From: Candidatus Desulfaltia bathyphila
GTDB lineage: Bacteria; Desulfobacterota; Desulfobacteria; Desulfobacterales; ETH-SRB1
DNA length: 41,210 nt
Direction: 5' to 3'
NCBI GenBank assembly: GCA_014381545.1
Contig: JACNLL010000010.1
Location: 1 to 41,210, forward strand
Numbering within the stretch: the stretch's first letter is position 1; each line of letters starts with the position of its first letter. The position numbers and the translations under genes are program-made. The notes under the pieces were generated by a model that searched no databases, had not been told where the DNA came from, and was given only the letters and a program-made list of their open reading frames with translations. Below are positions 37,921-40,804 of the stretch, piece after piece.

Positions 37921-38000
37921 CGTCACTCCGGTGAAAACCGTAGTCCAGATGGTCTGCAACTGCTTGAAAAGACTGGATTCCGGCTTTCGCCGGAATGACG
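37921..38000. repeat. REP-like palindrome between rplT and pheS
   Basis: CGTCACTCCGGTGAAAACCG at the left is an inverted, slightly diverged copy of GGATTCCGGCTTTCGCCGGA plus ATGACG at the right. The right copy itself holds a perfect hairpin ATTCCGGC-TTTC-GCCGGAAT. The sequence is the widespread proteobacterial repeat GTCATTCCGGCGAAAGCCGG. Outer AAAAAGTC and GACTTTT segments extend the symmetry. It sits inside the ribosomal protein/pheST operon and would be transcribed. Confidence 0.7.
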
Positions 38001-38047
38001 GAAAACGGTATTTTTGGACTTTTGACGAAGCTATCAAAGGTCTCAAT

Positions 38048-38398
38048 TTATATCTGTTGCGCAGCCAGGCTGGCTATCTGTGTAAATGCTAAGGGATCGG
38101 ATATTGCCAGCTCTGCAAGAACCTTGCGGTCAAGCTCGATATTTGCAACTTTTAATCCGTGGATGAATTTACTGTATGACATGTCATTCATGCTGGTTGC
38201 CGCATTAATCCTGAGAATCCAGAGTCTGCGAAAATCCCTTTTGCGAACTCTTCGATCACGATAAGCATACATAAGCGCTTTATCTACAGCATCAGCAGCA
38301 GTGCGAAATAATTTGCTGCGGCCTCCACGGAATCCTTTGGCCATTTTTAAAACCTTATTGCGACGTCTTCTTGCTTTAAAACCTCTCTTAATGCGCAT
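38048..38398 (-). CDS. rplT: 50S ribosomal protein L20
   Basis: The 116-residue, highly basic protein starts [20 protein letters not shown], followed by [20 protein letters not shown] and [15 protein letters not shown], all hallmark L20 segments. L20 binds 23S rRNA early in 50S assembly and in many bacteria represses its own operon by binding mRNA. Here the 184 bp between rpmI and rplT hold two inverted repeats, so the usual tight rpmI-rplT spacing is broken. Confidence 0.98.
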
Positions 38399-38465
38399 AA
38401 TTTATTCCTCAATAATATTCAGTTCGGCTGCTACTTATAGAACTTAGCTCCACTTCGTTCCGCAA

Positions 38466-38576
38466 TTGGTCGAGTGGTCAAGTGGTTGATTGGTTTAAGG
38501 GCCTTACGACTCGACAACTCGACTATTTAACTACTCGACCAAAGTCGCTGGAATTTCAATAAGTTGTAGAAATTCC
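38466..38576. repeat. Two inverted repeats between rpmI and rplT
   Basis: TTGGTCGAGT (38466-38475) and ACTCGACCAA (38533-38542) are perfect inverted copies, and the space between them holds further GTCGAG/CTCGAC variants. Next to it GGAATTTC (38550-38557) pairs with GAAATTCC (38569-38576). The second hairpin is 6 bp from the rpmI stop. They may be insertions of repeat DNA or structures for operon control. Confidence 0.55.
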
Positions 38577-38582
38577 GAGACG

Positions 38583-38780
38583 TTATGTATTAGGAAGAAG
38601 CAGCCGTACTCCCTTCTTGTTGGATTTGTCGATAATCTGGCCCTGCCTCAAAGACCTCTTACGCTTGGTGGTCTTTTTTGTTAGTATATGACTTGCATTC
38701 GATTTTGAAAAGACGAATTTGCCTGTGCCTGTTTTCTTGAAACGCTTTGCAGCGGCTCTATTTGTTTTGATCTTTGGCAT
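38583..38780 (-). CDS. rpmI: 50S ribosomal protein L35
   Basis: The 65-residue basic protein shows the L35 pattern: [20 protein letters not shown], followed by the [20 protein letters not shown]-type C-terminal half. AAAGGAG precedes the ATG. A hairpin with 11 perfect pairs lies 30 bp upstream, between infC and this gene. Confidence 0.97.
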
Positions 38781-38809
38781 GTTATATTTTCTCCTTTACA
38801 GCTCAAAAA

Positions 38810-38852
38810 TCGATGGCGTGAACGATCGACAAATGCCGACCCACGCCATCGA
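38810..38852 (-). promoter_or_regulatory. Strong hairpin in the infC-rpmI gap (attenuator or L20 leader candidate)
   Basis: TCGATGGCGTG (38810-38820) and CACGCCATCGA (38842-38852) are perfectly complementary over 11 bp with a 21-nt loop. On the transcribed (minus) strand the stem is followed by TTTTTGAGC, so it resembles a weak intrinsic terminator. It is immediately upstream of the rpmI ribosome-binding site. L20 binding sites are often found in this part of the operon, but I cannot show the specific L20 fold. Confidence 0.5.
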
Positions 38853-39002
38853 AACCTTTAAAAAATGTTCAATTTTGCCTGCCCGCTTTGTTTTTATATT
38901 GTATATTGAACAGGGGTTCAAGTTCAAGGAAGGCGAAAATTTGAGCCTAAATTTGTTATCGTATTAGGGATTATTAATAATAAATAATCCGGTTTCCGGT
39001 TA

Positions 39003-39542
39003 TTATTTTGGCGATAAAATCATCATCATGCTGCGTCCCTCAAATTTGGGATGCTGCTCAACAAATGCTATGTCATCGATTTCTTCGGCAATCTGTCCTA
39101 ACAAATCCCTGCCGCGCTGAGATAGCATAATTTCACGGCCTCTGAAAATGACGGTTACCTTGACCTTATCCTTTTTGCCTATAAATTTCTTTATATGACC
39201 TATCTTGGTCCTGAGATCATGATTCCCGGTCTTTGGACGTATCTTTATCTCTTTTACCTGAAATGAGCTTTGCTTTTTTTTTGCTTCCTGCAATTTCTTG
39301 GTTAGTTGATACTTATACCGCCCATAATCCATTATTTTGCAAACAGGAGGGTTTGCATTAGGAGAAACTTCTACCAGGTCAAGACCAAAATCCCCGGCCG
39401 TTGCTAACGCCTTATAAGTTGGAATAATGCCGATCTGATTGCCGTCAGGATCTATCACCCTTACCTCTCTTGCTCTTATCCTATTATTAATGTTTATTCT
39501 GCTTGATCTGGCTGGTCTATTTGTGTGTCTGAATATTGCTAT
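39003..39542 (-). CDS. infC: Translation initiation factor IF-3, probable AUA start
   Basis: The 179-residue factor contains NNRIRAREVRVIDPDGNQIG, then LVEVSPNANPPVCKIMDYGR, KEIKIRPKTGNHDLRTKI and VTVIFRGREIMLSQRG, typical of IF3. No ATG, GTG or TTG exists upstream of the conserved NNRIRAREVRV. The first GTG (39458) would remove that block. AGGAGG (39555-39550) lies exactly 7 nt before an ATA codon at 39542-39540, giving the N-terminus (M)AIFRHTNRPARSSRININN. infC normally uses AUU so that IF3 can repress its own translation, and AUA would serve the same end. The customary upstream thrS is absent; a deaminase gene lies there instead. Confidence 0.93.
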   Translation of the reverse strand: MAIFRHTNRPARSSRININNRIRAREVRVIDPDGNQIGIIPTYKALATAGDFGLDLVEVSPNANPPVCKIMDYGRYKYQLTKKLQEAKKKQSSFQVKEIKIRPKTGNHDLRTKIGHIKKFIGKKDKVKVTVIFRGREIMLSQRGRDLLGQIAEEIDDIAFVEQHPKFEGRSMMMILSPK

Positions 39543-39560
39543 GCCTTTACCTCCTGATGT

Positions 39561-39579
39561 TGCAGTTCAATCAACTGCA
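39561..39579 (-). promoter_or_regulatory. Small hairpin just upstream of the infC ribosome-binding site
   Basis: TGCAGTT and AACTGCA (7 bp, 5-nt loop) end five bases before the AGGAGG of infC. A weak promoter-like TTGCAT...TATATG pair (39645-39640 and 39624-39619, 15-nt spacing) is upstream. Together they define a short leader that could take part in infC control. Confidence 0.4.
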
Positions 39580-39677
39580 GTAAATCTTAATTTTCAATCC
39601 TTATTTGCAAAACTATCGCATATATAACAACATTAAGAAATGCAAGAAAAAAATACGATTTAAAACCTTGATTTAAA

Positions 39678-39767
39678 TACAGCGCAACTTTTGCCCATGA
39701 CGTACTATCCGCAGTTGATCAATTCCTAAATTATCCGTAGTACTGAAAAGCAAGAACTTGCGCTGTA
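39678..39767. repeat. 90-bp palindromic unit next to the deaminase stop codon
   Basis: TACAGCGCAA (39678-39687) and TTGCGCTGTA (39758-39767) are perfect inverted ends. Symmetry continues inward (CTTTTGC against GCAAGAA, GTACTATCCG against CCGTAGTAC). It begins 3 bp after the stop of the deaminase gene. It is not related in sequence to the 125-bp elements but has similar design and position. Confidence 0.55.
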
Positions 39768-39770
39768 GTA

Positions 39771-40277
39771 CTATTGTATAAGTGTATAGTCGGCTAACAG
39801 GCTTCCCGCCCAGTAAGTATTATTCGGATTTGAAAAATATTGCCTGAAAAGTCTCAGGCTCTTTGCACGTAATATATTTGGAATAATTGAAATTTTACTA
39901 TTTCTATACAAAGGGGATAATTTTGTCAAATCAGACCTTGTGAATCCTCCCATTACATCTTCATACGCATAAACAATTTTGCCAACATTGCTTAAAACAA
40001 GAGCGCAGTAGCACATAAGGCACGGTTCCAGTGTGCAGAACAGAGTTATATCTTTTTTGTTTAAAACCCCTTTAAAATCAGCAAGACGCCTTAAAGCAAC
40101 TATCTCTGCATGGTCTATTTCATTTGCGGAGGTTTCTGAGGTGCCTGCCCGGGATCCGGTTGCGACAATCTTATCCTGATGCACTATCACACATCCTACA
40201 GGGAATTCTCCGGCTGACAATGTTTTTTTTGCCTGGTCAAGCGCTTTTTCCATAAAATAATTATAAAGTCGAGTCAT
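39771..40277 (-). CDS. Cytidine/deoxycytidylate-type nucleoside deaminase
   Basis: The 168-residue protein has the zinc-dependent deaminase site: H56-A57-E58 in NEIDHAEIVALRRL, and C86-C89 in CTLEPCLMCYCALVLS. The fold start reads AGEFPVGCVIV. It resembles TadA (tRNA adenosine deaminase) and guanine deaminase. However, the residues after the zinc motif (YCALVLSNVGKIVYAYEDVM) and the missing conserved Asn before HAE differ from genuine TadA. I therefore call it only a nucleoside or base deaminase. Its ATGA start overlaps the stop of the upstream HsdR-N-like gene by 4 bp, so the two are translationally coupled. A palindrome abuts its stop. Confidence 0.82.
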   Translation of the reverse strand: MTRLYNYFMEKALDQAKKTLSAGEFPVGCVIVHQDKIVATGSRAGTSETSANEIDHAEIVALRRLADFKGVLNKKDITLFCTLEPCLMCYCALVLSNVGKIVYAYEDVMGGFTRSDLTKLSPLYRNSKISIIPNILRAKSLRLFRQYFSNPNNTYWAGSLLADYTLIQ

Positions 40278-40804
40278 ATTGAGCAGCTTCCATCAATTTC
40301 AAATGCATAAACAATTCTTGCTTCCATCATGGCCTGCTTTTCCGAAATCGACGTAAAACCAGCATGTCCGGAAATTTCGAGGATCTCAAGTTTTGAAGGT
40401 ATTGAATCAAGGCCGTGTGAAATTATCTTTCCTGTTGAACCATCAATAATTTCTGCATCCTCTCCGTTTGATACAACAACGACAGGCACCTGATAACCGG
40501 AAACAAGTCTTGATACGGCAAGAGCGGGCCGGCGTCTGGTTACCAAGGAACCGGGGCCGTATTTTATTATCATACAGATCCTGCCTGATAAAGTAACCAT
40601 GAAATCAACATTTATAACAGACCTTTTATCTCCCGCATTTACAAGAAGTTGATGGCGAACTTTAATTTCATTTTTTTGATAACCCTTATCATCGACAAGC
40701 AAACGGGCTAATTTTTGTCTATAGCGCTCGTCATGGGTGGCTTTTATGGTTTTGCCGGTGATATAATCTGTAAGTTCACCAAGCACCAGATAACCTTTGC
40801 CCAT
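40274..40804 (-). CDS. Stand-alone HsdR N-terminal-like protein (PD-(D/E)xK fold, probably inactive)
   Basis: This 176-residue protein is similar to the N-terminal nuclease-like domain of type I restriction HsdR. It reads EIKVRHQLLVNAGDKRSVIN, then VDFMVTLSGRICMIIKYGPG and SLVTRRRPALAVSRLVSGYQ with VPVVVVSNGEDAEIIDG. The Asp of the nuclease motif is present (VDFMV), but the acidic residue expected two before the Lys is Ile (MIIK), so cleavage activity is doubtful. There is no helicase part, and no complete modification or specificity gene is present. It overlaps the deaminase gene (ATGA). The upstream ribosome-binding GGAG is inside a RhuM-like fragment. Its function is unknown. Confidence 0.75.
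   Translation of the reverse strand: MGKGYLVLGELTDYITGKTIKATHDERYRQKLARLLVDDKGYQKNEIKVRHQLLVNAGDKRSVINVDFMVTLSGRICMIIKYGPGSLVTRRRPALAVSRLVSGYQVPVVVVSNGEDAEIIDGSTGKIISHGLDSIPSKLEILEISGHAGFTSISEKQAMMEARIVYAFEIDGSCSI

What the first reader, a model, noticed from the sequence alone, without database searches (positions are those of the whole stretch)
39003..39561. infC appears to start at AUA
No ATG, GTG or TTG precedes the conserved N-terminal block. A perfect AGGAGG is spaced 7 nt from ATA at 39542, and the product has normal IF3 length (179 residues). AUU is the classical start that lets IF3 repress its own gene. AUA is rarer and would be a variant of the same control. A 7-bp hairpin lies 5 nt above the Shine-Dalgarno sequence. 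Automatic annotation would truncate the protein at GTG 39458.
Basis: partly seen in the sequence, partly recalled or inferred. Interest (0 to 1): 0.5.

Follow-up and report, generated by a model that had tools for sequence, protein, structure and literature searches.

The report
IF3 gene starting at AUA codon
The gene for the translation factor IF3 begins at the weak start codon AUA, which almost all of the examined relatives share and which most likely lets IF3 limit its own production; this is a well-known kind of control, and AUA has already been seen at this gene in Staphylococcus aureus.

Summary
infC (39003-39542, minus strand) has no ATG, GTG or TTG between the in-frame TGA (39569-39567) and the conserved IF3 block. 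ATA at 39542-39540 sits 7 nt after a perfect AGGAGG; the product has 179 residues. It is no sequencing error: of 55 order genomes with a full infC, 54 have ATA at the aligned start and one ATC. The third base of that codon changes once on the IF3 tree, against 15-18 times at conserved internal Ile codons. Downstream rpmI and rplT start at ATG in 37 of 37 and 29 of 29 loci where they were found. IF3-mediated autorepression, as known for E. coli AUU, is the natural mechanism (inferred, not tested here). The 7-bp hairpin exists but is not conserved. AUA at infC is already reported in S. aureus by initiation profiling (PMC13009471), and other bacteria use AUU or AUC, so this is a new member of a known kind. 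Less expected is how fixed AUA is across the order, which suggests that AUA, AUU and AUC are not interchangeable.

The parts
39003..39542 (-). infC, translation initiation factor IF3, 179 residues read from ATA
   Evidence: TIGR00168 213.7 bits; Pfam IF3_N 18-87 and IF3_C 95-179; 10 PDB sequences of IF3 at E up to 1e-10
39540..39542 (-). ATA start codon
   Evidence: no ATG/GTG/TTG between upstream in-frame stop and conserved block; 54 of 55 order genomes ATA here; third base changes once on the tree
39550..39555 (-). Shine-Dalgarno AGGAGG, 7 nt from ATA
   Evidence: sequence; AGGAGG within 22 nt upstream in 46 of 54 order genomes, GGAGG in 51 of 54 (L128 not in this count)
39567..39569 (-). 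in-frame TGA that bounds the frame upstream
   Evidence: sequence
39561..39579 (-). 7-bp hairpin TGCAGTT-GATTG-AACTGCA, present here but not conserved
   Evidence: pairs formed in 7 genus genomes: 7,5,6,5,3,6,6 of 7; leader z-score 0.58
39456..39458 (-). GTG (Val29) at which an ATG/GTG/TTG-only gene finder would start; internal codon
   Evidence: the ORF listing gives 39003..39458; it lies inside Pfam IF3_N
38583..38780 (-). rpmI (L35), ATG start; comparison gene
   Evidence: TIGR00001; aligned start ATG in 37 of the 37 order loci (of 55) in which it was found
38048..38398 (-). rplT (L20), ATG start; comparison gene
   Evidence: TIGR01032; aligned start ATG in 29 of the 29 order loci (of 55) in which it was found

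Best explanation
infC is translated from AUA by the ordinary initiator tRNA, giving an N-terminal Met, guided by a strong Shine-Dalgarno sequence. AUA pairs imperfectly with the initiator anticodon, so IF3 bound to the 30S subunit tends to reject the complex. High IF3 lowers its own synthesis and low IF3 releases it, as with AUU in E. coli. Shown here: the place of the start and its conservation. Inferred from known biology: decoding by initiator tRNA, and repression by IF3.
For: No ATG/GTG/TTG is available before the block. In the order, ATA at the aligned start in 54 of 55: 53 by script, L128 by eye, one ATC (L104). In 38 of these 55 no ATG/GTG/TTG lies between the in-frame stop and the block (codons at least 7 before the anchor, stop found within 45 codons); of the 38, 37 are ATA and 1 ATC. 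Internal Ile codons of 54 of these genes mix freely (277 ATA, 307 ATT, 260 ATC). Third-base changes on the tree: 1 at the start, 15-18 at six internal Ile columns. Exact SD match is longer at infC (median 8) than at rpmI or rplT (median 6) in the same loci, though infC starts were chosen partly by SD, which favours infC. Literature passages: S. aureus infC AUA mapped by retapamulin profiling (PMC13009471); IF3 represses non-canonical starts, and infC is ATT in E. coli and ATC in Streptomyces (PMC5472188).
Against: No ribosome profile, proteome or reporter for this organism was available. Autorepression was not tested. A 16S 3'-tail pattern was not found in the draft genome (0 of 1 genome), so SD pairing rests on general knowledge. 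In the phylum sample 3 of 70 have SD-supported ATG/GTG/TTG starts and 1 more only an SD-less GTG, so the control is not indispensable everywhere. Within the genus, changes in codons 2-28 show no third-position excess (4, 10 and 6 variable sites at positions 1, 2 and 3).
Confidence: 0.9

Rival explanations
1. The gene starts at the internal GTG 39458 (Val29) and the upstream part is leader.
For: It is where the ATG/GTG/TTG-only ORF list starts the frame.
Against: It would remove 11 residues of Pfam IF3_N, which starts at residue 18. Of 10 PDB IF3 sequences, 5 align from query residues 11-18; the other 5 align from 44 or later. The motif at residues 22-30, which a GTG start would cut, is found by the pattern in all 55 order loci.
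Confidence: 0.02
2. ATA is a sequencing or assembly error for ATG, or a one-off mutation.
For: The window comes from a draft genome in 107 contigs.
Against: The same ATA is in all 7 genus genomes examined and in 54 of 55 genomes of the order.
Confidence: 0.01
3. AUA is the start but is only a weak start with fixed low output; there is no feedback by IF3.
For: Weak starts lower output without feedback: S. aureus AUA/AUU reporters of three other genes gave about 10% of AUG in poor medium (PMC13009471 passages). Nothing here measures feedback.
Against: IF3 is the factor that rejects such codons, and feedback at infC is stated as established for E. coli (PMC5472188 passages); non-AUG infC starts recur across lineages.
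Confidence: 0.08
4. The ATA is kept because ATAG/ATAA overlaps a stop codon and couples infC to a short upstream frame.
For: All 54 ATA starts in the order are followed by G (51) or A (3), making TAG or TAA. In the window a TTG-initiated 11-codon frame (39574-39539 with its stop) ends at that TAG.
Against: Five of the 7 genus genomes have a stop (TAG in CATTAGGAGG) in that frame just upstream. A second codon beginning with G is expected anyway (Ala or Val; recalled).
Confidence: 0.03

Closest known systems
E. coli infC (AUU start) autoregulation by IF3
   Same: IF3 gene with an AUH start codon that is subject to IF3 discrimination; rpmI-rplT downstream (E. coli gene order recalled; ATT start and autoregulation seen in PMC5472188 passages)
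   Different: AUA instead of AUU; the next gene upstream here is a TadA-like deaminase, not thrS as in E. coli (thrS recalled); feedback not tested here
Staphylococcus aureus infC (AUA start), PMC13009471
   Same: Same gene and same start codon, with an extended SD; there mapped by retapamulin ribosome profiling (passages read)
   Different: Unrelated lineage; here the start is inferred from sequence and conservation
Streptomyces infC (ATC) and sigR (GTC), PMC5472188
   Same: Non-canonical start repressed by IF3 (sigR tested there); infC misannotated in most Streptomyces species according to that paper (passages)
   Different: Different codon
Listeria monocytogenes infC (ATT), PMC13068326
   Same: Fixed non-canonical infC start, said to be experimentally confirmed (passages)
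   Different: ATT; that paper's rsbW reporter shows ATG > ATA > ATT, so AUA and AUU need not be equivalent

Membership tests
infC (translation initiation factor IF3) | Near full-length match to IF3 models | tested here: met
   TIGR00168 213.7 bits, cut-off 60, positions 4-168 of 170; IF3_N and IF3_C
infC genes with non-canonical start | No usable ATG/GTG/TTG before the conserved block | tested here: met
infC genes with non-canonical start | Near-cognate codon with SD at proper spacing, conserved in relatives | tested here: met
   54 of 55 ATA in the order; AGGAGG in 46 of 54
IF3-autoregulated infC | Extra IF3 lowers, and IF3 shortage raises, translation; lost on change to AUG | not testable with these tools
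   needs reporter or profiling; known for E. coli (titles of Butler 1987 and Sacerdot 1996 seen in a reference list)
IF3-autoregulated infC | Product initiates with fMet at this codon | not testable with these tools
   needs N-terminal proteomics
Structured leader control (hairpin near SD) | Hairpin conserved or with compensatory changes | tested here: not met
   all 7 pairs formed in 1 of 7 genus genomes; leader z 0.58; in the order 1 of 55 leaders has a perfect stem longer than its own base shuffles at 0.05

The most novel reading that the evidence does not exclude
AUA, AUU, AUC and CUG are not interchangeable at infC. Each lineage keeps its own codon because the codon sets the gain or resting level of the IF3 feedback loop. 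In this order the third base is held at A (one change on the tree, against 15-18 at internal Ile codons; in the order-plus-phylum sample 12 against 32-39 on the same rows). The codon would then be an inherited tuning of translation fidelity.
Probability: 0.4. Interest if true: 0.5.

Novelty: new member of a known kind. Interest (0 to 1): 0.3.

Why it matters
It corrects a gene model that ATG/GTG/TTG rules truncate (151 instead of 179 residues), and it shows that in the sampled genomes of a whole order the IF3 start is AUA rather than the textbook AUU. The strong fixity of AUA against AUU/AUC raises a testable question: does the choice among weak start codons set the IF3 level, and with it initiation fidelity?

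Tried and rejected
Hairpin as regulatory element: rejected, not conserved. Out-of-frame short ORF ending at the TAG within ATAG: 5 of 7 genus genomes have a stop in that frame just upstream; set aside. Rfam leaders: 0 matches at gathering scores in the whole window, and 2 matches, both to microRNA models at E 3.4 and 4.1, in 38000-39900, taken as chance. 16S tail in own genome: pattern not found. Motif rarity alone: AGGAGG-N5-9-ATA occurs 5 times in the window against 1.68 expected, so not decisive by itself. Codon-position bias of changes in codons 2-28 within the genus: 4, 10 and 6 variable sites at positions 1, 2 and 3, so no third-position excess and no coding signature at genus level. SD length at infC against rpmI and rplT: the infC starts were picked by the best SD among candidates and the others were fixed by alignment, so the difference is biased towards infC; a supporting point only. 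The ATG result for rpmI and rplT was read at the aligned first residue and is not a test of the start-calling script. Start calls for the other six groups (180 loci) rest on SD matches as short as 4 nt and are only indicative, above all in the groups around L046 and L050.

Full report
What is there. On the minus strand the order is a TadA-like deaminase gene (40277-39771), infC, rpmI (38780-38583), rplT (38398-38048), then two ORFs that look like pheS and pheT (names recalled from sequence, not run). infC read from ATA 39542 gives 179 residues, matches TIGR00168 at 213.7 bits, Pfam IF3_N at 18-87 and IF3_C at 95-179, and 10 PDB sequences of IF3 at E up to 1e-10. Between the in-frame TGA at 39569-39567 and the ATA there are eight codons, none of them ATG, GTG, TTG or another ATN/NTG near-cognate. 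The ORF list, limited to ATG/GTG/TTG, starts the frame at GTG 39458, inside the IF3_N domain. AGGAGG lies 7 nt before the ATA. The nearest named records are Desulfobacteraceae/Desulfobacterales metagenome genomes.

Conservation in the order. One search covered 58 genomes (own genome included) and found infC in 56; G016 and G053 had none. One of the 56 (G023) was a 30-residue fragment and was dropped, leaving 55, all examined (L001, L082-L135; stretches). A script anchored on the IR..EVR.I motif looked for start codons with an SD match. It called ATA in 53, ATC in 1 (L104), and an SD-less ATG in 1 (L128). Read by eye, L128 has GGGGGGAATAAGT-ATA-GCT, whose SD is not an exact substring of the script's reference, so I count 54 of 55 ATA. 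In 38 of 55 no ATG/GTG/TTG lies between the stop and the block (37 ATA, 1 ATC); in the other 17 at least one such codon exists or no stop was met within 45 codons, and there the ATA call rests on the SD.

Is it a start codon and not a plain Ile codon? (a) The third base: internal Ile codons in 54 of these genes use ATA, ATT and ATC in similar numbers (277, 307, 260), yet the start is ATA in 54 of 55. On an IF3 tree built from the anchor onward, without the start codon (FastTree), the start codon changes once and six conserved Ile columns change 15-18 times. (b) The SD: exact match to the anti-SD complement is longer at infC (median 8) than at rpmI (37 loci, median 6) or rplT (29 loci, median 6); paired tests p 9e-7 and 3e-5. 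The genomes are related, and infC starts were chosen partly by SD, so this is a supporting point only. (c) Neighbouring genes: the codon aligned to residue 1 is ATG in 37 of 37 rpmI and 29 of 29 rplT found in the 55 loci. Against: within the genus, codons 2-28 show 4, 10 and 6 variable sites at codon positions 1, 2 and 3, so there is no third-position excess.

Wider sampling. One search covered 296 genomes of the phylum and 290 had infC; its list of places was cut at the weaker end. I examined 70 of these 290: the 30 best-scoring loci plus 40 picked by me from the listed rows, from 32 families, one of them (L200) in the same order. The calls were 40 ATA, 18 ATC, 5 ATT, 3 CTG, 3 SD-supported ATG/GTG/TTG (L139 GTG, L148 TTG, L187 ATG), and 1 where the script found only an SD-less GTG (L201). 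On the tree of the 124 scored genomes of both samples the start state changes 16 times against 28.8 on average in 200 shuffles (minimum 24). With only AUH starts counted (118) there are 12 changes, against 32-39 at four internal Ile columns on the same rows. Around six other genomes (by record titles: Fictibacillus L072, Mycobacterium L071, a Rhodothermales L046, Roseovarius L027, L039, a cyanobacterium L050; L039 is titled Comamonas but is a 9-Mb genome that I take to be myxobacterial, untested), I took 30 loci each, 180 loci from 178 genomes. Of the 180, 90 have no ATG/GTG/TTG before the block. The script ATC, 50 ATT, 38 ATA and 1 CTG, 7 canonical with SD, 17 canonical without SD, and 13 none. 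These calls are indicative only, because weak SD matches were allowed. Of the 80 loci the script ATA, 17 ATC, 6 ATT, 5 CTG and 5 canonical. That search used a peptide pattern containing the first residue as Ile, so it may favour AUH starts, and it partly overlaps the other samples; I do not rely on it.

How it works. [quoted passage not shown] coli and ATC in Streptomyces, and that IF3 thus autoregulates its translation, is stated in PMC5472188 (passages). S. aureus infC starts at AUA by retapamulin profiling, and its authors also infer autoregulation (PMC13009471 passages). L. monocytogenes infC has a fixed ATT start, and an rsbW reporter there ranks ATG > ATA > ATT (PMC13068326 passages). 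In a reconstituted system IF3 favours strong pairing at the third codon base and excludes weak pairing (PMC10158994 abstract and passages). By analogy the present gene is repressed by its own product. This last step is inferred.

What does not hold. The hairpin at 39579-39561 is real in this genome but forms 7, 5, 6, 5, 3, 6 and 6 of 7 pairs in the seven genus genomes. The leader is no more stable than shuffles. It is best treated as incidental. AUA is not a rare variant in this lineage.

Novelty. I searched the held library for infC with AUA start codon, with AUU/IF3/non-canonical, for IF3/AUA/autoregulation, for infC with AUC/AUA/AUU, with ATA start/annotation, with Desulfovibrio, with Gvozdjak/non-AUG, and with initiation codon/AUU/AUC/evolution. 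Among the listings and the passages I opened I found the S. aureus AUA report and no statement on this order; most subscription papers are not held. Gvozdjak and Samanta (arXiv 2008.10758) on genes preferring non-AUG starts in bacteria was seen only as a reference title; that it lists infC is recalled. The finding is a new member of a known kind; the fixity of AUA is the part worth a follow-up.

Noticed in passing
window 39618-39650 (minus strand): A non-coding block TTTTCTTGCATTTCTTAATGTTGTTATATATGC upstream of infC is nearly invariant in the 7 aligned genus genomes, while the sequence around it diverges. A looser form with up to 3 mismatches occurs once in the own genome. Possibly the infC promoter, though the sigma-70 scan called no site there.
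   Followed up: partly
window 38811-38850 (minus strand): An inverted repeat GATGGCGTG...CACGCCATC in the infC-rpmI gap (read), where L20 leader control acts in some other bacteria (recalled); no Rfam leader matched.
   Followed up: no
L139, L148, L187: Three infC genes in the phylum sample with SD-supported GTG, TTG and ATG starts: lineages that may have lost start-codon control of IF3.
   Followed up: partly
window 40274-40804 (minus strand): A 176-residue protein whose one Pfam match is HSDR_N_2 (type I restriction R-protein N terminus), overlapping the start of the TadA-like deaminase gene by 4 bases.
   Followed up: no
L327 and L355 (both G495); G484, G499; L362 and L385 (both G531); G523, G528; G376: Some genomes carry a second infC-like gene: near full-length in G495, G484 and G499, to profile position 155-156 of 170 in G523, G528 and G531, and a weak one (94 bits) in G376.
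   Followed up: no
L039: The record is titled Comamonas sp. KCTC 72670, but its genome has 9 Mb and its infC start region gives the same candidates as that of the Myxococcus record L052: perhaps a mislabelled record.
   Followed up: no
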